From positions 1-21,754 of IMG/VR virus record IMGVR_UViG_3300034759_000131: 21,754 bases of DNA; one strand, 5' to 3'. This document shows positions 1 to 21,754 of this stretch, in pieces; the first letter of the stretch is position 1; each line of letters begins with the position of its first letter. The stretch is from a virus. Made by a program: the position numbers and the translations under genes. Under the pieces are notes generated by a model, which did no database searches, was not told the origin of the DNA, and worked only from the letters and a program-made list of their open reading frames with translations.

Positions 1-378
1 AACACTTGGTGCAAGCCATCCTTTGTATCGACGCCTGTTCAAAAATCTTGGTTTTCTATATCTTCTCTTACGGTACCTTCTGTTTCTTCTATACTCTCTT
101 CTCTTCAATAATAACTTCTTTATATATTGTCGCAGTTCTACTTCCATACTGAGTAGTTCTTGTTTTTCTGTTATTGCTGAAATACCAACTACTTTTGAGC
201 CAATATCAATACCAACAGTTACTGGCTGTGTGTATGTCGTTGCATCATACAACAACTGAATTGTGAAGGGCTCTCTTCTAACAACTTTTGCAAGCCCCTG
301 CTTTAAAAGCTTTCTCACTTTGCCGTGCCTTTTGGTAGGCATTAGTGGTTTACCGTTTTTTGAAATAACATAGACCAT
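1..378 (-). CDS. iscB: IscB RNA-guided nuclease, N-terminal part (partial at left edge)
   Basis: The minus strand is open from an ATG at 378 to the window edge, giving 126 residues. They begin with the IscB-type PLMP domain (residues 9-16 read GKPLMPTK) followed by a basic stretch. A RuvC-I strand follows (VGIDIGSKVVG, catalytic Asp58), then an arginine-rich bridge helix at about residues 92-117. IscB is the ancestor of Cas9 and cuts DNA using an omega RNA encoded just upstream. The HEARO RNA sits exactly there (379-638), which supports the call independently of the protein. A GGAGG ribosome binding site lies 8 nt before the start. The HNH, later RuvC and C-terminal parts lie beyond the window, so the related HNH-less IsrB cannot be excluded and activity cannot be judged. 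The GC content looks clearly higher than in the phage genes. Confidence 0.9.
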   Translation of the reverse strand, partial: MVYVISKNGKPLMPTKRHGKVRKLLKQGLAKVVRREPFTIQLLYDATTYTQPVTVGIDIGSKVVGISAITEKQELLSMEVELRQYIKKLLLKRREYRRNRRYRKRRYRKPRFLNRRRYKGWLAPSV

Positions 379-638
379 ACAATTACCTCCAATCGTCTTT
401 TGACGATAAGTCAGGGAAACCCTGTAAGATGCTCATCCCCAATGTTAGACTGGCTTGTTATGCCTGCCACACTGTCCCTACCCCTCAGGACTGTTTAATG
501 ACAGACGACAGAGCCTGAAACTTGAGCAGCATTTCAGGGTGTCGTGACCAGTCTAACGTAGCCATTTCAGTGGCTGAGGGTAGTCAACTAGGGCTTTTTC
601 TACAAGCCCCCACCTCTATAGGTGGTGGGTAGTTGACT
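379..638 (-). ncRNA. HEARO / omega RNA of the IscB element
   Basis: This roughly 260-nt, comparatively GC-rich stretch lies directly upstream of iscB on the same strand and is full of complementary segments. A long-range stem pairs 630-638 with 582-590 (AGTCAACTA with TAGTTGACT). It encloses two hairpins, CCACCT/AGGTGG around 610-626 and GGGCTT/AAGCCC around 591-608. A second perfect 10-bp stem pairs 548-557 with 444-453 (GTTAGACTGG with CCAGTCTAAC). Local hairpins include CCTGAAA/TTTCAGG, CAGGG/CCCTG and ATCGTC/GACGAT, the last just before the iscB ribosome binding site. This matches the known HEARO arrangement, in which the RNA precedes the ORF and guides IscB. In that family the guide is the roughly 16 nt 5' of the scaffold, here about 639-654 (TTATGATAATATAGAT). 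The exact RNA ends are inferred. Confidence 0.85.
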
Positions 639-854
639 ATCTATATTATCATAAATCACAGAAATGAAAACAGTTTCTTCATTATTAGTTGGAACTTCTG
701 AAAATAACAACATTGCTTTCTTTTGTACAGTAAAATTGAATTCTTTATCAAAAAAGTCTTCAACTACTCTGAAATATATAGCATTCTGATTCTTCTTAAA
801 TTTTAATAATGTTATAAGCTTATCAAACAAGCTCTTAACATTTTCTTTTTCCAT
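600..854 (-). CDS. Phage protein of unknown function, 3' end replaced by IscB element
   Basis: The 84-residue frame starts at an ATG with a good upstream site (AAAGGGAG) and follows the 874-1320 gene by 19 nt, so it belongs to the polymerase operon. Residues 1 to about 72 are ordinary phage sequence, with a helical, lysine-rich start and then alternating beta-like segments ending in SVIYDNID. The last 12 residues (SQLPTTYRGGGL) are encoded by the 5' hairpin of the HEARO RNA, and the stop codon at 600-602 lies inside that RNA. The simplest reading is that the element inserted into the gene and gave it a foreign tail. The rest of the original gene may lie left of the window. I do not recognise the family. 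Its position beside a neck-like protein makes a virion role possible, but this is only inference. Confidence 0.6.
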   Translation of the reverse strand: MEKENVKSLFDKLITLLKFKKNQNAIYFRVVEDFFDKEFNFTVQKKAMLLFSEVPTNNEETVFISVIYDNIDSQLPTTYRGGGL

Positions 855-873
855 CGCTGATAACTCCCTTTAA

Positions 874-1320
874 TTAATTATTATCTTCGTACATGATATT
901 TAGTACTACACTATAACATATATCTCTATGAATATCGGTACTACCTAGTTTAAACTTGTATAAAACATCGTCATAAGGCAATTTAAGTTCAATAATATCT
1001 CCTTCTTTAGGTGCATCTGAAAATTTCATCATACCATTAATAGATGTATTTGTCTCTATACTCTGGCCATAGGACTTAAGCACTTCGTTGAATCTTTGAT
1101 AGTCAACATATACATAAGTATTACTTACATCATATAAATCTTCACTATCATCTAAGACTATCTGGTCTTGATAAAGAGGATCTAGTACTGCTTGATTGCC
1201 TATCCATTTTTTATGCTTACATGGTATACCATACATGTCTATTATTTCATCTACATATTGACGTAAAAGTTCTTTATCAAGAGTTTGGTGGAAAAATTCA
1301 TTAAAATTTATCTCAGCCAT
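874..1320 (-). CDS. Possible T4 gp14-like neck/head-completion protein
   Basis: This encodes 148 residues, starting with the ATG at 1320 directly after the peptidase stop codon. A weak GGTGAT site lies within the end of that upstream gene, so the two are probably translationally coupled. The sequence has a YGIPCKHK segment early, then a DPLYQDQ segment and acidic beta-strand pieces. A C-terminal stretch with PKEGDIIELKLPYDDVLYKF precedes CYSVVLNIMYEDNN. This order (YG near the N-terminus, DPLY, then GDxIxL with a YKF strand) recalls virus neck proteins of the T4 gp14 type. That is my impression from pattern alone and is weak. No catalytic motif, signal peptide or membrane segment is visible. 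Confidence 0.55.
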   Translation of the reverse strand: MAEINFNEFFHQTLDKELLRQYVDEIIDMYGIPCKHKKWIGNQAVLDPLYQDQIVLDDSEDLYDVSNTYVYVDYQRFNEVLKSYGQSIETNTSINGMMKFSDAPKEGDIIELKLPYDDVLYKFKLGSTDIHRDICYSVVLNIMYEDNN

Positions 1321-5461: not shown

Positions 5462-5677
5462 TTATAATTCCTTATGTAAGACTAAAAACCTCAAAAACTT
5501 AACCCAAATATAATGGGTTATAACCGCAGCAGATGTTATAACGAAATATTTAAATATTCCATGATGCGGCCATGGATAATGAGTACTCAACCACAATGCT
5601 ACCATAAGCATTGGTAAAAAGGCTATTATTAATACTATCAAATAAGATAATGTGTTTACTGTTTCCTTCCTATTCAT
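5462..5677 (-). CDS. Small two-helix membrane protein, function unknown
   Basis: The 71-residue protein has two clear hydrophobic segments, at about residues 10-30 (LSYLIVLIIAFLPMLMVALW) and 43-66, joined by a short loop containing HYPWPHHG. The ends are charged. This is a small integral membrane protein. Holin is one possible role because of size and topology, but no lysis gene is adjacent and no family is recognised. It forms its own unit, with a strong promoter at 5714-5741, a GGAGTTGG site before the ATG, and a palindromic terminator at 5411-5432. Its promoter and leader are nearly identical to those of the 9885-10298 gene. Confidence 0.75.
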   Translation of the reverse strand: MNRKETVNTLSYLIVLIIAFLPMLMVALWLSTHYPWPHHGIFKYFVITSAAVITHYIWVKFLRFLVLHKEL

Positions 5678-5743
5678 TTCCTTCCAACTCCTTTATTTAT
5701 TATTTACATTATTATTATAACATATTCTAGAAATTTGTAAATA
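5675..5743 (-). repeat. Promoter-leader cassette, copy 1
   Basis: This stretch, from the start codon to beyond the -35 element, matches 10296-10364. The first 38 nt are identical, and only scattered differences occur in the promoter spacer. It carries the TTTACA/TATAAT promoter and the AAAGGAGTTGG ribosome binding site. The downstream coding regions are unrelated. Confidence 0.8.
5714..5741 (-). promoter_or_regulatory. Promoter of the small membrane protein gene
   Basis: TTTACA (5736-5741) and TATAAT (5714-5719) are 16 nt apart with an extended TGT before the -10 element. It lies immediately downstream of the nrdJ-operon terminator. Confidence 0.8.
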
Positions 5744-6076: not shown

Positions 6077-9000
6077 TTATTTACAATCTGAGAATCCACA
6101 ACTTGGACAAACCGAACAACCAGATGTCTGCATCATTTGAACCCCGCATTCCGGACACCAATTCCTGTAATGCCCAAATTTATTATCATCCGAACTTATT
6201 TGTTCTTTAACTGAAGTAGCATCTATTATAGTCTCACAACCACGATGCTTAAAAGTCATCTTATAATAAGTATTCAAATCTTTTAACATCTTAGCAACTG
6301 CGTCTGGAATACTCTTAACTACGACCTCTTCTCCATCTAATAAATTATATACCCAAACTTCAGAACCAGATATGTTGCTTATCGTATTTATTAAATCTTC
6401 AATATCAACTCCTGACCTTAATGCCAAACTTATAACTCTACTCAAAGCTTCAGTTATGGATTTTGAAACACTACCGGACTTACCTGAAGATATAAAAGTT
6501 TCAAACATATTTCCATCATCATCAAAGTTTGCTGTGACATATATAGAACCATACGGTGAATCAGATTTAGTAGTAACTCCTTTCATAAATCTTGGTCTTA
6601 TCCTTATTTTATTTACTTTATTACCATAATTGTCTTTAATTACCTCCTTCTTTTCTTCTTTCTTATCCTCTTCAATATCACCTTTAATCGGTTGATCTTT
6701 AGAACCATCTCTGTATATCGTAATACCCTTTATCTTATACTCGTAACATTTTTCATATACCTTCTTAACGTCTTCAACTGTGGCATCTGACGGTAAGTTT
6801 ACTGTCTTACTTATAGCGCTATCAACATACGGTGCAAATATTGCTACAACTTTAACGTGTTGTTCAGGAGTTACATCATGGGCTTTAATAAGTAATCCTT
6901 TTTCTTCATTTTCTTTGTTATATAGCCTGTGGTAATACATTAATGTCTGCTTTTTATTATCTTCTACAGTTACTTGCCTTGTCCATCTATAATGGAAATT
7001 AGGTTCTATTCCTGAGCTGGTATTTAATATCAATGATATAGTTCCAGTTGGAGCAATGGACAATCTTCTTGAATTTCTTAAGCCATCTTTGTTTGGTGTA
7101 GTGCTGAATATTGATTTAAGCAAACCAACCATATATTCTTTATCTATACCCATATAACTTTCTTTATAATGAACTATGGCATTTCTAAATGATATTGGTA
7201 TTTCGTCATTTTCCTGTATTCGTTTAATTATCTCATCAATATTATCTATCGAAATTTCCGTATCTTTAACGAATTGTGTTAAGAAAGCTCTTTCTCCTTT
7301 TGGAGCATCGAAATGTGGATATGGACCTTTAAGCTTAGCCATAGATACTGTACCTATCAAAGAATACGTAGCCATTATCTTTGCTATCTTATCGGCGAAA
7401 TCTTCAAATTCTTCAGAGCCATATTTAATTCCCATTTTTATACAAGCATCTGCTAATCCCATAATTCCTAGACCAATTGGTCGTATATCCTTTGTATTTC
7501 TTTCTATAATTTCTAATGGATAACTAGTAGCATCTATAACTAAGTCTAGATAATATACAGATCTTAATACTTGTTCTTTAAATGCTTCATAATTAAATTC
7601 ACCTGAATCATCTACAAATTCGTAAAGGTTTATCGAACCTAGGTTACAGCTTGAGTTATTTGGTAACGGTTGCTCTCCACAGTTATGTACTAGTATCCTG
7701 TTAGCAAAAAAGTTGTGATTCTTTTTAACTGTTATATCATAGACGTCTTCATTTTCAGCTTTAGATATATCCTTTAATCCTGTAAAATTATATGTTAAAC
7801 CATTATCTTCTATTATGATTAAAGTGTCATTTTTAGTAAGATTACTTGCTTCTACATAACCACGATTTTCAGTATATACTTTGTGGTCTGGAGTTAGTTT
7901 TAATACTTTACCATCTTCTAATTCTATTTTTATTATATTAGCATTCTTTCTAGTACAACCGTAAAATTCAACCTTTTCAGTCTCGAATTCTTTAGTCTCA
8001 ATATTAAATGTAATTACATAATCGTCGGTCGTTATCTCATCTATACGCTTCTCTCCTTCAGTCGTCATTACTAATGTATCTCCGGTCAAGCAAGGATTCG
8101 TTGATTCTATATAATATTTTTCATCCATTTTTAATATATTATCTTTATTAGCTGTATCGATGAAGAATATTCCTGGATCTCCATTTCTGTGGGCATTCTC
8201 ACAAATCTTATCCCAAATCTTTCTAGCTTTAACCTTTCTTACTACTCTACCATCTGCTGGAGAAATCAATTCGTATTCATCATTATTCTTTACAGCTTCC
8301 ATAAATTTGTCATCTATAGCTACAGAAATATTAAAATATGTTAAACTTTTATTATCACTTTTAGCTGTAATAAAGTCTTCTATATCTGGGTGATGTGAAT
8401 ATAGCATGCCCATTAAAGCAGCTCTTCTCTTACCGCCCTGTACTACAGTTGAACCCATTGTATTCCAGTTTTGCATGAATGAAATAGGCCCGGAAGCTTT
8501 ACCACCCAAACCACCTGCTATTAAAGCACCTTTTTCTCTTAGGTTACCAAAGTTGGCTCCAACTCCTCCACCAAACTTAGAGATTATAGCAGCATTCTTT
8601 ACACTATCAAATATTCCTTCAATTGAATCTGGAACATCTATAGTAAAACAAGCAAACATCATTTGATTTTTGCTGTAATTACTCTTAATCTTTCTATATG
8701 TTTCTTTTATCTCGTCGATCGTAGAATTTCTTAAATCCTTGTATAATAATTCACTCAATTTTGGATCGGTACTTATACCAACTCCTGCTGAGAATAAAGC
8801 CGGGGAATTAAACAAGAACCTATGGCTCATCATATCATTGTATATATTAGTTTCAATATTGACTAGATGTTTAAGATCTTCAGCAGTCATATCTTCTTTG
8901 AATTCAGATGCAACAACTACCTTAGCTACACGTCGGCAAAGTTGAGAATATTCTTTTTCCTTATCACCATCTGGCAAATCCATATAATACCTCATCTTAA

Positions 9001-9091
9001 GTATTTCTTGTGCATTATGATCGATATCTTTTTCTCTCAACGGTGATAGCTTACCGAATACCTCTCTGTAAAGATTAGTAATATTATACAA
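6077..9091 (-). CDS. nrdJ: Class II (adenosylcobalamin-dependent) ribonucleotide reductase with mini-intein
   Basis: The 1004-residue precursor gives about 867 residues after splicing. It reduces ribonucleotides to deoxyribonucleotides for phage DNA synthesis using adenosylcobalamin. Class II signs are FNSPALFSAG (94-103), GGGVGANFGNLR, the NPCGE active-site loop, SSCNLGS, APTGTISLILNTSSGIEPNF, and a C-terminal zinc-ribbon/redox tail with CPECG and CSVCPSCG. By comparison with the Thermotoga enzyme, Cys471 is the thiyl-radical cysteine, Glu473 its partner, and Cys148 and Cys482 the redox pair (the 11-residue spacing is kept). No separate radical-generating subunit is needed. The start is TTG at 9091, supported by AAAGGAG 9 nt upstream. 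A 137-residue intein interrupts the active-site motif (separate entry). A divergent nuclease-like gene lies upstream, and a small helical-protein gene follows in the operon. Confidence 0.95.
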   Translation of the reverse strand: MYNITNLYREVFGKLSPLREKDIDHNAQEILKMRYYMDLPDGDKEKEYSQLCRRVAKVVVASEFKEDMTAEDLKHLVNIETNIYNDMMSHRFLFNSPALFSAGVGISTDPKLSELLYKDLRNSTIDEIKETYRKIKSNYSKNQMMFACFTIDVPDSIEGIFDSVKNAAIISKFGGGVGANFGNLREKGALIAGGLGGKASGPISFMQNWNTMGSTVVQGGKRRAALMGMLYSHHPDIEDFITAKSDNKSLTYFNISVAIDDKFMEAVKNNDEYELISPADGRVVRKVKARKIWDKICENAHRNGDPGIFFIDTANKDNILKMDEKYYIESTNPCLTGDTLVMTTEGEKRIDEITTDDYVITFNIETKEFETEKVEFYGCTRKNANIIKIELEDGKVLKLTPDHKVYTENRGYVEASNLTKNDTLIIIEDNGLTYNFTGLKDISKAENEDVYDITVKKNHNFFANRILVHNCGEQPLPNNSSCNLGSINLYEFVDDSGEFNYEAFKEQVLRSVYYLDLVIDATSYPLEIIERNTKDIRPIGLGIMGLADACIKMGIKYGSEEFEDFADKIAKIMATYSLIGTVSMAKLKGPYPHFDAPKGERAFLTQFVKDTEISIDNIDEIIKRIQENDEIPISFRNAIVHYKESYMGIDKEYMVGLLKSIFSTTPNKDGLRNSRRLSIAPTGTISLILNTSSGIEPNFHYRWTRQVTVEDNKKQTLMYYHRLYNKENEEKGLLIKAHDVTPEQHVKVVAIFAPYVDSAISKTVNLPSDATVEDVKKVYEKCYEYKIKGITIYRDGSKDQPIKGDIEEDKKEEKKEVIKDNYGNKVNKIRIRPRFMKGVTTKSDSPYGSIYVTANFDDDGNMFETFISSGKSGSVSKSITEALSRVISLALRSGVDIEDLINTISNISGSEVWVYNLLDGEEVVVKSIPDAVAKMLKDLNTYYKMTFKHRGCETIIDATSVKEQISSDDNKFGHYRNWCPECGVQMMQTSGCSVCPSCGFSDCK
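7682..8092 (-). other. Mini-intein in NrdJ (residues 334-470)
   Basis: The insertion begins with Cys334 (CLTGDTLVMTTEG, block A) and has block B LTPDHKVY (399-406, with His403). It ends with blocks F and G, EDVYDITVKKNHNFF and ILVHN (Asn470), followed by Cys471 as the +1 residue. All splicing residues are present. At 137 residues there is no room for a homing endonuclease, so it is a splicing-only mini-intein. Excision restores the sequence NPCGEQPLP. The +1 nucleophile for splicing is also the enzyme's catalytic thiyl cysteine. Confidence 0.93.
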
Positions 9092-9197: not shown

Positions 9198-9845
9198 GTG
9201 AGTACTAAATTTGACTTCCTTGAAGACTTAAAGAAGAACTACGATCACCACCCCGCTATTTGTTATTATTGCGGAAAACCCCTCTCATTCAAGAAATTCT
9301 ATAAGCAATATGAGCTCCCCAAAAAATTCTGTAGTAAAAAGTGTAAAAAAAGTTTTATTGAAGAAACTAATGAAGATATTAACGAAAAAAATTACGAATT
9401 TTCTTCCCAAACTGAAAAAGCTATTTACACCTTTCTGACATTAAATTACCCCAATTATGTAATAAAACATAACTTAAAAGATGTATTCCCTCCTTATGAA
9501 ATTGATTTGTTAATCGAGACTAAAGAATTCCCCATCTATATCGAATATAATGGAGTATTGCATTGTACTAGAAAACTAAAAGGTTCTATGGACAGAGTAG
9601 TCCAAAAAAGACGTATTAACGATAATATCAAGAAGAACGAAATATGCTGCGATCGTCAACAAAAAATGATACGAATATGGAGTGAGATTGGAATATACTC
9701 AAAACCCACTATATTTAATATAGCACTCAAACAACTTAAGAATGACATAGACATATTGATAAGCAATAATATTGCAGGTGGAAAGTGTATTGAGATTATA
9801 ATAGATAAAAATGGTACAATACACAGGTATGTCGATAATTATTAA
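9198..9845 (+). CDS. Zinc-finger nuclease-like protein (Vsr/EDxHD-type homing endonuclease candidate)
   Basis: This is the only convincing plus-strand gene in the window. It starts at GTG 9198 with AGGAG 8 nt upstream. The 215-residue product has a treble-clef-like zinc motif, CYYCGKPL then FCSKKCKK (Cys22, Cys25, Cys45, Cys49). A PD-(D/E)XK/Vsr-like core follows: SSQTEKAIYTFL (Glu73), NYVIKHNL, YEIDLLIE (Glu101, Asp103) and IYIEYNGVLHC (Glu116, Asn118). EID followed by IEYNG on adjacent strands is typical of phage-borne Vsr-like homing endonucleases such as the EDxHD group. It is isolated, divergent from nrdJ, and has its own terminator, as freestanding homing endonuclease genes commonly are. 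Reductase genes are frequent targets of such enzymes. A non-mobile nuclease is the main alternative. Confidence 0.75.
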   Translation: MSTKFDFLEDLKKNYDHHPAICYYCGKPLSFKKFYKQYELPKKFCSKKCKKSFIEETNEDINEKNYEFSSQTEKAIYTFLTLNYPNYVIKHNLKDVFPPYEIDLLIETKEFPIYIEYNGVLHCTRKLKGSMDRVVQKRRINDNIKKNEICCDRQQKMIRIWSEIGIYSKPTIFNIALKQLKNDIDILISNNIAGGKCIEIIIDKNGTIHRYVDNY

Positions 9846-9854
9846 AGTTTATTT

Positions 9855-9885
9855 GAGAGAGACCTTGTGGTCTCTCTCTTTATTT
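9855..9885 (+). terminator. Intrinsic terminator between convergent genes
   Basis: GAGAGAGACC (9855-9864) pairs with GGTCTCTCTC (9869-9878) around a TTGT loop and is followed by TTTATTTT on the plus strand. It ends the plus-strand nuclease gene. The near-symmetric stem, meeting the end of the 9885-10298 gene, suggests it may act in both directions. Confidence 0.9.
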
Positions 9886-10298
9886 TATAAATATTTTAAT
9901 TTTCTTACAATTTCATCTTTTATACTATACAATCCTATAACAAGATATCTCAACATTTTTTCATTAACTTCGAAGTTCCTATCAACTTTTCTCACAATCT
10001 CATCTATTACTATATCTACCAAATCATTGTCTGAGAATTCTCCAAATTTATTAATTTCTACCTTAATGGCATGTGTATCAAAAACCGCGGCAGATTCATC
10101 GGCTACAATTGATTCAAAACATATACTGGATAAAATCCTAAATTTTGTATCATTTTCTTTTTGTATATAATAAAATATACTTCTACCATTTTTAACATTG
10201 TCTGTAAAGTCTAGCAAAAACTTCTCTAATAATTCCATATATTCTTTATCTTCCAAAACTTCTAAACCTTCGTCTAGTAGTAGCTGCTTTCCGTCCAT
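9885..10298 (-). CDS. Hypothetical phage protein, unknown function
   Basis: This encodes 137 residues, acidic in the first half (LLLDEGLEVLEDKEYMELLEK), with alternating strands in the middle and a helical, basic end (IKDEIVRKLKYL). There is no catalytic motif, membrane segment or signal peptide, and I do not recognise it. It starts at ATG 10298 with an AAAGGAGTTGG site behind a strong promoter (10335-10362). It therefore has its own transcript, which ends at the terminator shared with the convergent nuclease gene. The promoter and leader are a near-copy of those at 5675-5743. Confidence 0.75.
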   Translation of the reverse strand: MDGKQLLLDEGLEVLEDKEYMELLEKFLLDFTDNVKNGRSIFYYIQKENDTKFRILSSICFESIVADESAAVFDTHAIKVEINKFGEFSDNDLVDIVIDEIVRKVDRNFEVNEKMLRYLVIGLYSIKDEIVRKLKYL

Positions 10299-10364
10299 TT
10301 CCTTCCAACTCCTTTATTTATTATTTACATTATAATTATAACACATATAAGGAATTTGTAAATA
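10296..10364 (-). repeat. Promoter-leader cassette, copy 2
   Basis: This is the near-identical partner of 5675-5743. It shares the start codon, AAAGGAGTTGG leader, -10 and -35 elements in the same register, with an identical 38-nt block from the ATG outward. Confidence 0.8.
10335..10362 (-). promoter_or_regulatory. Promoter of the 9885-10298 gene
   Basis: TTTACA (10357-10362) and TATAAT (10335-10340) have a 16-nt spacer with extended TGT. The promoter starts 8 nt after the stop codon of the upstream gene, with no terminator between, so read-through is also possible. Confidence 0.8.
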
Positions 10365-11739: not shown

Positions 11740-11781
11740 CTCCGATCAACTCCTTTACCATCTAATATCATTTACATTTTA

Positions 11782-11809
11782 ATTATAACACATTTCTGGA
11801 ATATGTAAA
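11782..11809 (-). promoter_or_regulatory. Promoter of the 11206-11739 unit
   Basis: TTTACA (11804-11809) and TATAAT (11782-11787) have a 16-nt spacer and extended TGT. The -35 element overlaps a 10-bp palindrome AAACATGTTT (11807-11816), which recurs at the same place in the 20813-20841 promoter. It lies just after the helicase gene, with no terminator before it. Confidence 0.8.
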
Positions 11810-18703: not shown

Positions 18704-19783
18704 TTATATTATTATATCAAAAAACGAATCAAAGTACATAGTATTTATTTCGTTTAAACATTCTTTATCAAAGTGTATTATTTTATTTTCATGAATGTCA
18801 CTAACAAAAGAAACAAAAGTATCAGCAATATTTAAAGCTATATCCAATATATTCATAAAATTGCAATGCGAATATTTCATTTTTTCTAATTCTAATCTTA
18901 CAAATTCAAAATTATCTTTCATATTTACGTTTAAAATAATATTATTTTTCTTAAATTGTTCATCGATTTTATATAATATTAAATCAAGGAAACCAATCAA
19001 ACCATCTATAATTGCAGCATTATCTCTTAAAATTAACCTATTCCATTTAATATCAGTCTTAGTAAGTTTATCTATCAGCTCAAAATCTCTTTCATAAAAA
19101 TGAGCGCTACCTATATTAACTTGCATATATTCATATTGTACATTTAAAATTCTAGACAAAAATTGCGCTACAATATCCCACCAAGGAATATCGAATGTTA
19201 ATCCCTTAATTGCATCTGAAGACCTTATATGGATTAAATTAAACAGTTTACCTTCTCTTACTAGGAAATGTTGGTTTTGTGTACATGTAAAATCTTTTAT
19301 ATTATCCTCATAAATAACAGGTAGTGTGTATTGAATTATTGCCTGTCTACTATGAATATCCTTTTCTAGAGTCTTAATTACATATTTAAAAGGTGAATTA
19401 TTTCTATCATATTCGTATTGTTCTACAACATCTTTATGGAACACATGATAACCGTAATTTGAATTGACTGCATTCGCATAATTAACATTATTTATATGGA
19501 GCTCATCCCTTATTGGATTTCTCAATTTATCCCACATCTTACCAAATAATGCTATATAATCCGGATAAATATGACCGGACATATACCACATAAATTCTGC
19601 TCTTAAATACTTACCTTCAGGTGTCTTGTTATTCGTAGTATTTCTAAGTTCAGAATTTATAATAACTTCATTATTGGTAACTTCCAACCTCTCACCTATT
19701 CTTTCTTTAATCAGCATACCTCTTGGACTTGTTACATAACTATCAATATTAATTCGTTGTATTAAATCCTTGTATAAATTCAT
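18704..19783 (-). CDS. Thymidylate-synthase-family enzyme, probable dCMP hydroxymethylase (T4 gp42-like)
   Basis: The 359-residue product has the thymidylate synthase fold pattern. It reads FMWYMSG with Glu63 before it, SNYGYHVF (108-115), SRQAI with the phosphate-binding Arg146, and catalytic Cys167 in FTCTQNQHF. RSSD (187-190), GLTFDIPWW (194-202) and HFY (His228, Tyr230) follow. In thymidylate synthases the residue after GxxF is Asn (Asn177 in E. coli), which selects dUMP. Here it is Asp198, as in T4 dCMP hydroxymethylase, so dCMP is the likelier substrate and a modified cytosine in phage DNA is implied. Hydroxymethyl versus methyl transfer cannot be told from sequence. The C-terminus is long and lacks the usual thymidylate synthase ending. 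ATG 19783 has AAAGGAG upstream. Confidence 0.82.
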   Translation of the reverse strand: MNLYKDLIQRINIDSYVTSPRGMLIKERIGERLEVTNNEVIINSELRNTTNNKTPEGKYLRAEFMWYMSGHIYPDYIALFGKMWDKLRNPIRDELHINNVNYANAVNSNYGYHVFHKDVVEQYEYDRNNSPFKYVIKTLEKDIHSRQAIIQYTLPVIYEDNIKDFTCTQNQHFLVREGKLFNLIHIRSSDAIKGLTFDIPWWDIVAQFLSRILNVQYEYMQVNIGSAHFYERDFELIDKLTKTDIKWNRLILRDNAAIIDGLIGFLDLILYKIDEQFKKNNIILNVNMKDNFEFVRLELEKMKYSHCNFMNILDIALNIADTFVSFVSDIHENKIIHFDKECLNEINTMYFDSFFDIII

Positions 19784-20849: not shown

Positions 20850-21754
20850 TTAAATCTTTACACCTCTTTCTTCAGGAGTACCAGGAATCAAACTATCACA
20901 AATAGCTGCAAGTATTCCTGCGACTGCCATCGGTGTCTTTAAAATACCCCAAATTATTTGACCTATAACTCCATAATCAAAGAATACTTCTTGTTGTCCT
21001 TCTACCCAACCTGGTAGACCAAGAGCCATTAAGAAGGCGAAACCGACTATTAAAACATTTCGTTGACTAGTCATGTCGGCTTTCAAAAGAACTTGTATAC
21101 CTAATGCTCCTATAATTCCAAATAAAGCTATGTAAGCTCCACCTATTACAGGACTAGGTATGGTAGCTATCAATGTACCTAGTTTTCCTATCATACTGAG
21201 TATTATAAGAATAACTGCACCTATTCTTACGACATATCTGGAAGCTACACCTGTAAGACTTATTAAACCTATGTTTTCTGTATAAGATGTAGTACCTACA
21301 GCTCCAAATATTCCAGCTAAAGCACAACCTATTCCTTCAGCTCCAATACCACGACTTATGGTATCTGAATCAGGGTCGTCTAAACCAGCTGCATATGAGC
21401 AAGAATGATAGTCTCCTATAGACTCTATCATTACGGCAAAGAAACCTGCTAATATAGCACCGAATGCTAAGAAACTAAATTTAGGAATTCCCCAAGGCAT
21501 AATGAAATTAAACCTAAACCATGACACCTTAGTAACATTAGTTAAATCTACGTAAGCTGGATGCCCAGCGGTAAACACTTCAGTTACGCTCAGTATTAAA
21601 CATATTAAATAGGATATAATAATCGATGACAATATAGCAAATATATTAACATACTTATTCTTGGATATTAGACTAAAAATGAATATCAATGCTACTACTA
21701 AAAGCGATATCGGCCAGTAATTAGCAGCATTGTATTCAACGGCGACGGGAGCTA
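20850..21754 (-). CDS. NCS2/NAT-family nucleobase permease, C-terminal part (partial at right edge)
   Basis: The frame is open to the window edge. About 300 residues are visible, from APVAVEYNAANYW to the stop at 20850; an internal TTG at 21689 is not a credible start. Many hydrophobic segments indicate a multi-pass membrane transporter. Family marks are ESIGDYHS, with the substrate-site glutamate, and TENIGLISLTGVASR, matching the NxGxxxxT signature. Segments around ISRGIGAEGIGCALAGIFG and the conserved SRNV-type loop (TSQRNVLIVGF) resemble the SVCT-like branch of the family as well as xanthine/uracil permeases. Substrate could be uracil, xanthine or a related compound. It is co-directional with the replication genes and ends just before the clamp-loader promoter. 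A transporter of this kind is unusual in a phage and could be an auxiliary metabolic gene. Confidence 0.9.
   Translation of the reverse strand, partial: APVAVEYNAANYWPISLLVVALIFIFSLISKNKYVNIFAILSSIIISYLICLILSVTEVFTAGHPAYVDLTNVTKVSWFRFNFIMPWGIPKFSFLAFGAILAGFFAVMIESIGDYHSCSYAAGLDDPDSDTISRGIGAEGIGCALAGIFGAVGTTSYTENIGLISLTGVASRYVVRIGAVILIILSMIGKLGTLIATIPSPVIGGAYIALFGIIGALGIQVLLKADMTSQRNVLIVGFAFLMALGLPGWVEGQQEVFFDYGVIGQIIWGILKTPMAVAGILAAICDSLIPGTPEERGVKI

What the first reader, a model, noticed from the sequence alone, without database searches (positions are those of the whole stretch)
1..638. IscB/HEARO element carried inside a T4-type phage genome
The minus strand shows a textbook order: HEARO/omega RNA, then an IscB start with PLMP domain, RuvC-I Asp58 and Arg-rich bridge helix. 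IscB elements are known mostly from bacterial chromosomes. One inserted in the middle of a phage replication/structural operon suggests phage-borne spread and an RNA-guided nuclease acting during phage competition.
Basis: partly seen in the sequence, partly recalled or inferred. Interest (0 to 1): 0.8.

Follow-up and report, generated by a model that had tools for sequence, protein, structure and literature searches.

The report
IscB guide-RNA nuclease element in phage
A tailed phage carries a small mobile element that encodes an RNA-guided DNA-cutting enzyme (IscB, the ancestor of Cas9) with its guide RNA, inserted into a phage gene that is unbroken in close relatives; it is a well-documented new example of a known kind of element.

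Summary
Window 637..424 (-) is a full-length HEARO/omega RNA (177.5 bits, gathering 83) and 378..1 (-) is the first 126 aa of an IscB, cut off by the contig end. A near-identical contig (L004) supplies the rest: a 425-aa IscB with RuvC, HNH and a C-terminal region, and a right junction back into the same phage operon. A 99.7%-identical contig (L002) lacks the element, and two related phages have the split gene unbroken. So it is a real insertion, not a chimera. The element is about 1536 bp, starts exactly at HEARO position 1, and is flanked by ATGA, as in all six near-clade copies checked. It has no transposase. Its nearest IscBs are in thermophilic Bacillota and Thermotogota. Phage-borne HEARO/IscB is already published, and I found 107 viral-contig relatives, so this is a new member of a known kind. 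Best mechanism: the guide copied from the left flank lets IscB cut element-free copies of that site (retention or homing). New details: one phage contig holds six HEAROs, and the only element-free allele keeps the 16-nt guide match but has CTGA instead of ATGA and an apparent 22-nt deletion there. Phage competition is untested.

The parts
424..637 (-). HEARO (omega RNA) scaffold; its first base (637) is the left end of the element
   Evidence: Rfam RF02033, model 1-211 in full, 177.5 bits; alignment to the element-free contig L002 stops at this point
638..653 (-). Predicted 16-nt guide TATGATAATATAGATA, derived from the left-flanking phage gene
   Evidence: Sequence directly 5' of HEARO position 1; 16/16 identical in the element-free allele L002. 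That the guide is the 5' region of the HEARO RNA is established for the family (PMC9755519); the length of 16 nt is from general knowledge of IscB
385..390 (-). GGAGGT ribosome-binding site of iscB
   Evidence: Sequence
1..378 (-). iscB, first 126 of 425 codons (PLMP, RuvC-I Asp58, Arg-rich bridge helix); truncated by the contig end, complete in L004 4917-6194
   Evidence: Pfam RRXRR, NCBIfam NF040563; full copy
638..854 (-). N-terminal part of the phage gene split by the element (123 aa when unbroken; the ORF as called runs on into HEARO to 600)
   Evidence: Unbroken in L002 4862-5233; unbroken homologues in L182 and L185 in the same gene order
874..1320 (-). Phage gene upstream of the split gene (148 aa), conserved neighbour used to find the same locus elsewhere

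Best explanation
It is a transposase-less IscB (OMEGA/ISC-type) element that entered a tailed phage from a thermophilic bacterial lineage and sits 5' of an ATGA motif inside a small, dispensable phage gene. Transcription through the phage operon makes an RNA of about 16 nt of flanking phage sequence (guide) plus the HEARO scaffold. IscB binds it and cuts DNA that matches the guide and carries the motif next to it, that is, the same site without the element. The occupied copy is spared because HEARO, not ATGA, follows the guide. Repair of the cut from an occupied genome restores or copies the element, so the nuclease keeps the element in place and can spread it among co-replicating phage genomes. 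Movement to a new site probably needs a Y1 transposase supplied in trans. Shown: structure, both ends, element-free allele, flanking motif, intact catalytic residues. Inferred: expression, cleavage, homing, trans-transposition.
For: Complete HEARO and IscB with HNH and RuvC. L004 gives the right junction; L002 and the related phages L182/L185 give the unbroken gene. ATGA lies at a fixed 20 nt from the start of GTCTCC in 6 of 6 near-clade copies; ATGA frequency in their flanks is 0.0077, so about 2e-13 by chance. The guide matches the element-free allele 16/16. The IscB is nested with thermophile chromosomal IscBs at 100% SH-aLRT. Same transcription direction as the operon and a good RBS. No Y1 transposase in L004 or L002, one in phage contig G008. 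Retention and gene drive by the analogous TnpB are reported (PMC11870625).
Against: No cleavage, expression or homing data exist. The only element-free allele found has CTGA, not ATGA, and 22 nt fewer than the flank-joined L004, so it may not be a substrate. Only one contig spans the right junction. Cut phage genomes might simply be lost rather than repaired. The exact motif read by this nuclease is not known; ATGA could reflect the transposase's site choice.
Confidence: 0.68

Rival explanations
1. A passive passenger: a recently inserted, neutral bacterial element that rides in the phage and does nothing useful there.
For: It breaks a gene, has no transposase of its own, and a degenerate copy with an internal deletion exists in another phage contig (L007: HEARO kept, IscB reduced to 106 aa).
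Against: The reading frame, catalytic residues (D58, E152, H206/H207, H295, D298) and HEARO pairing are all intact; several phage contigs of the same IMG number series carry 3-6 HEAROs.
Confidence: 0.2
2. A weapon against competing phages or the host, with the guide aimed at another genome.
Against: The guide is exactly the insertion-site flank. Among all sequences held, guides of 18 elements gave no convincing target in another phage next to an NTGR motif; the one exact extra hit (L180) is an AT-rich match in an unrelated contig found by a collection-wide scan. Whole genomes of co-occurring phages and hosts were not scanned.
Confidence: 0.08
3. Assembly chimera joining host or other DNA to a phage contig.
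For: The contig ends inside the element, a typical place for assembly breaks.
Against: The window and two contigs from different IMG assemblies share the left junction (L003 with 3 SNPs, L004), and L004 crosses the whole element into the next phage genes, which match L002 with 2 mismatches in 1899 bases.
Confidence: 0.01

Closest known systems
IscB/HEARO (OMEGA) elements of bacteria, e.g. OgeuIscB (PDB 7utn, 8csz) and the HEARO nucleases of Aliaga Goltsman et al. 2022 (PMC9755519)
   Same: PLMP, split RuvC, Arg-rich bridge helix, HNH; HEARO RNA directly upstream; no adjacent TnpA, as in most of the family
   Different: HNH lacks the CxxC...CxxC zinc ligands of the six other family members aligned; this is shared with its thermophile sister clade, not unique to the phage copy
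IscBs of Thermoanaerobacter thermocopriae (74% aa), Caldicoprobacter oshimai (71%), Athalassotoga/Thermotoga (63%)
   Same: Same clade; in the copies whose right end was read (L096, L156, L094), the same right end, GTCTCC + 14 nt + ATGA; similar left end where found
   Different: Those are in bacterial contigs; the T. thermocopriae copy is frameshifted into two ORFs
TnpB of IS200/IS605 elements as retention factor and gene drive (PMC11870625)
   Same: Guide is copied from the insertion flank, so the nuclease targets the element-free site
   Different: TnpB's guide is at the 3' end of its RNA (own knowledge); here the guide is 5' of HEARO and the motif is on the right flank; the drive was shown for plasmids, not for this phage
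Free-standing HNH homing endonucleases of T4-like phages (own knowledge)
   Same: Would spread by cutting the vacant allele in mixed infections
   Different: Target chosen by RNA guide rather than by protein

Membership tests
IscB (OMEGA) element | HEARO/omega RNA directly upstream of the ORF | tested here: met
   RF02033, 177.5 bits, ending 45 nt upstream of the ATG
IscB (OMEGA) element | PLMP domain, RuvC-I/II/III and bridge helix | tested here: met
   NF040563 361.5 bits on the full L004 copy; alignment to OgeuIscB; D58, E152, H295, D298 invariant
IscB (OMEGA) element | HNH domain (separates IscB from IsrB) | tested here: met
   Pfam HNH E 3.1e-7 in the full copy; VHH, N221 and H230 invariant
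IscB (OMEGA) element | Guide from the left flank and conserved target-adjacent motif on the right flank | tested here: met
   16-nt flank intact in the element-free allele; ATGA in 6/6 near-clade copies. The motif is that of the insertion sites; the nuclease's own requirement was not measured
IscB (OMEGA) element | RNA-guided dsDNA cleavage | not testable with these tools
   Needs biochemistry
Autonomous ISC/IS605 transposon | Own Y1 transposase (TnpA/IscA) | tested here: not met
   No Y1_Tnp in the L004 or L002 records; none recognised among the window's ORFs
T4-type phage | T4-like replication module | tested here: met
   gp43-like PolB, clamp loader, SMC/Rad50-hook ATPase (gp46-like), 5'-3' exonuclease
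T4-type phage | T4-type structural genes | not tested
   None identified in the 21.7-kb window; not searched for in the related contigs
Phage genome (not host contamination) | Large terminase in related contigs with the same gene order | tested here: met
   G001 and G002, which hold L182 and L185, have a Terminase_6N match over the cut-off

The most novel reading that the evidence does not exclude
The element-free allele L002 is an escape allele: IscB cut the vacant site in phage populations, and L002 survived by end-joining that removed about 22 nt next to the cut and left CTGA in place of ATGA, while keeping the gene in frame. This would be natural evidence of IscB acting as an RNA-guided homing nuclease, and of resistance to it, among phages, in a set of related samples where a single phage contig carries up to six such elements.
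Probability: 0.2. Interest if true: 0.68.

Novelty: new member of a known kind. Interest (0 to 1): 0.4.

Why it matters
Occupied, element-free and related-phage alleles of one locus make the question of what IscB does for its own spread directly testable in phages, where many genomes share one cell and a guide aimed at the vacant site could act as a drive. It also supplies a thermophile-related IscB without HNH zinc ligands that could be of practical use.

Tried and rejected
DNA search of 1-2500 in named phages: no match. Search for a donor of the 23-nt right-flank stretch (its first 21 nt as pattern): found only in L004. Search for more alleles of the site by guide, by gene and by right flank: only the window, L003, L004 and L002. 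Trans-targets of 18 phage-element guides within the sequences held: nothing convincing. Chimera: rejected. MicX hit at 9886..9756: below gathering score, taken as chance. The Altae-Tran 2021 paper and one further look-up by DOI (10.1038/s41586-023-06597-1) were not held, so they were not used as evidence. A query for a repeated motif upstream of genes was badly chosen and gave nothing; a self-comparison replaced it.

Full report
Observation. The window is the whole of one IMG/VR record of 21,754 bases. On the minus strand, 637..424 matches the Rfam HEARO model from its first to its last position at 177.5 bits against a gathering score of 83, and the strand folds well below shuffled controls, z = -4.67. 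The ORF 378..1 matches RRXRR and guided_IscB over their N-terminal parts and stops only because the contig ends.

Completing the element. The neighbouring 148-aa gene was used to find the same locus elsewhere. L004 (IMGVR_UViG_3300033986_000064) is 100% identical to the window over 5294 bases and runs on through a 425-aa IscB into more phage genes, ThyX first. L003 (3300033987_000078) shares the left junction with three SNPs over 7320 bases. L002 (3300034684_000109) is 99.7% identical but lacks the element; the alignment breaks at HEARO position 1 and the gene continues in frame for 123 codons. Two related phages, L182 and L185 (PolB 66-69% identical), have the same gene order with an unbroken homologue of the split gene, 37-39% identical.

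Ends and motif. In L004 and five near relatives (L007, L096, L156, L094, L097) ATGA begins 20 nt after the first base of GTCTCC in all six; the ATGA frequency in the flanks is 0.0077 per position, so six out of six is about 2e-13 by chance. The element is therefore L004 4658-6193, 1536 bp, with HEARO position 1 as its left end, and it is followed by ATGA. Wider relatives often show ATGA or ATGG at the same place (read by eye, not counted).

The vacant allele is odd. Between the end of the element and the point where L004 and L002 agree again (TGAAGACG), L004 has 23 nt, ATGAAAAAGATTAAAGATCCAAA; L002 has a single C. The unbroken homologues have 14 residues between the conserved (M/I)Y and DEGL motifs, L002 has 6, and the flank-joined L004 would have about 13 (counted by hand from the sequences). 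This favours a deletion in L002 starting at the insertion point over extra DNA in L004, but the joined L004 sequence is out of frame by one base, and with one contig on each side the direction is not settled. The 23-nt stretch was found nowhere else in the viral collection. In L004 the ATG of this stretch overlaps the IscB stop codon (TGATG) and opens a frame into the C-terminal part of the split gene, so that fragment may still be made.

Protein. The full copy passes the IscB equivalog model (361.5 bits against a cut-off of 175) and aligns to OgeuIscB in the PDB. D58, E152, H206/H207, N221, H230, H295 and D298 are invariant in seven family members. The HNH lacks the CxxC pairs seen in the other six; the thermophile sister sequences lack them too, so it is a clade trait.

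Origin. The closest cellular sequences are mostly from thermophiles: T. thermocopriae 74%, C. oshimai 71%, Thermotogota 63%. In a tree of 89 IscBs the phage copy pairs with C. oshimai (98% SH-aLRT) inside a set with four cellular sequences (100%), and viral and cellular labels need 19 changes, at least 12 of them forced by strongly supported branches. Exchange between phage and bacterial DNA in this family is therefore frequent. One direct case: the element of the 185-kb phage contig (L063) and one in a Thermotogota MAG contig with cellular neighbours (L135; GTPase, FeoA-like and phosphotransacylase-like genes, read by eye) are 95% identical in DNA. Caveat: the viral label is IMG/VR's; terminase was confirmed for four contigs only.

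Context. Several phage contigs of the same IMG number series hold more than one HEARO: six in 3300034684_000299 (185 kb, with terminase and one Y1 transposase), three in 3300033998_000095, three in 3300034683_000093; the relative that holds L185 has one at another site. No Y1 transposase was found in the L004 or L002 records.

Mechanism. Established for the family (PMC9755519): the 5' part of the HEARO RNA is the guide and the protein cuts double-stranded DNA next to a target motif. Applied here, the guide is the phage sequence TATGATAATATAGATA, identical in the vacant allele, so the predicted target is the vacant site. That is the logic shown for TnpB on plasmids (PMC11870625). Cleavage, expression and homing in this phage are inference.

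Known or new. Viral HEARO nucleases were reported in 2022 (over 16% of fragments) and 107 viral-contig relatives were found here. This is a new member of a known kind. The alleles around it are what raise its value.

Noticed in passing
IMGVR_UViG_3300034684_000299 (G008; L190, L195, L199, L202, L203, L204): One 185-kb phage contig with a terminase carries six HEARO RNAs with six different flanks/guides and one Y1 transposase.
   Followed up: partly
L007 2751-3378 (IMGVR_UViG_3300033998_000355): Internal-deletion derivative of the same element family: HEARO and both ends kept, IscB reduced to 106 aa, flanked by ATGA.
   Followed up: partly
L135 and L063: Element DNA 95% identical between a Thermotogota MAG contig with cellular neighbours and a phage contig, a sign of recent exchange.
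   Followed up: partly
window 6077-9091 (-): B12-dependent ribonucleotide reductase interrupted by a small intein of about 130 aa with no endonuclease domain matched.
   Followed up: no
window 9198-9845 (+): The only sizeable gene on the + strand between the replication genes: 215 aa with CxxC zinc motifs and a possible Vsr/EDxHD-like endonuclease core (by eye; only a weak PHROG match); possible free-standing homing endonuclease beside the intein-bearing gene.
   Followed up: no
window 18704-19783 (-) and L004 6371-7003 (+): The phage has both a ThyA-family protein and a ThyX; one may make a modified base.
   Followed up: no
window 5675-5743, 10296-10364, 11766-11809: An AT-rich sequence repeated (91% over 69 nt; 86% over 44 nt) just upstream of three minus-strand genes, perhaps a phage promoter.
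   Followed up: no
window 20850-21752 (-): A nucleobase (xanthine/uracil family) permease gene at the right end of the phage contig, unusual cargo for a phage.
   Followed up: no
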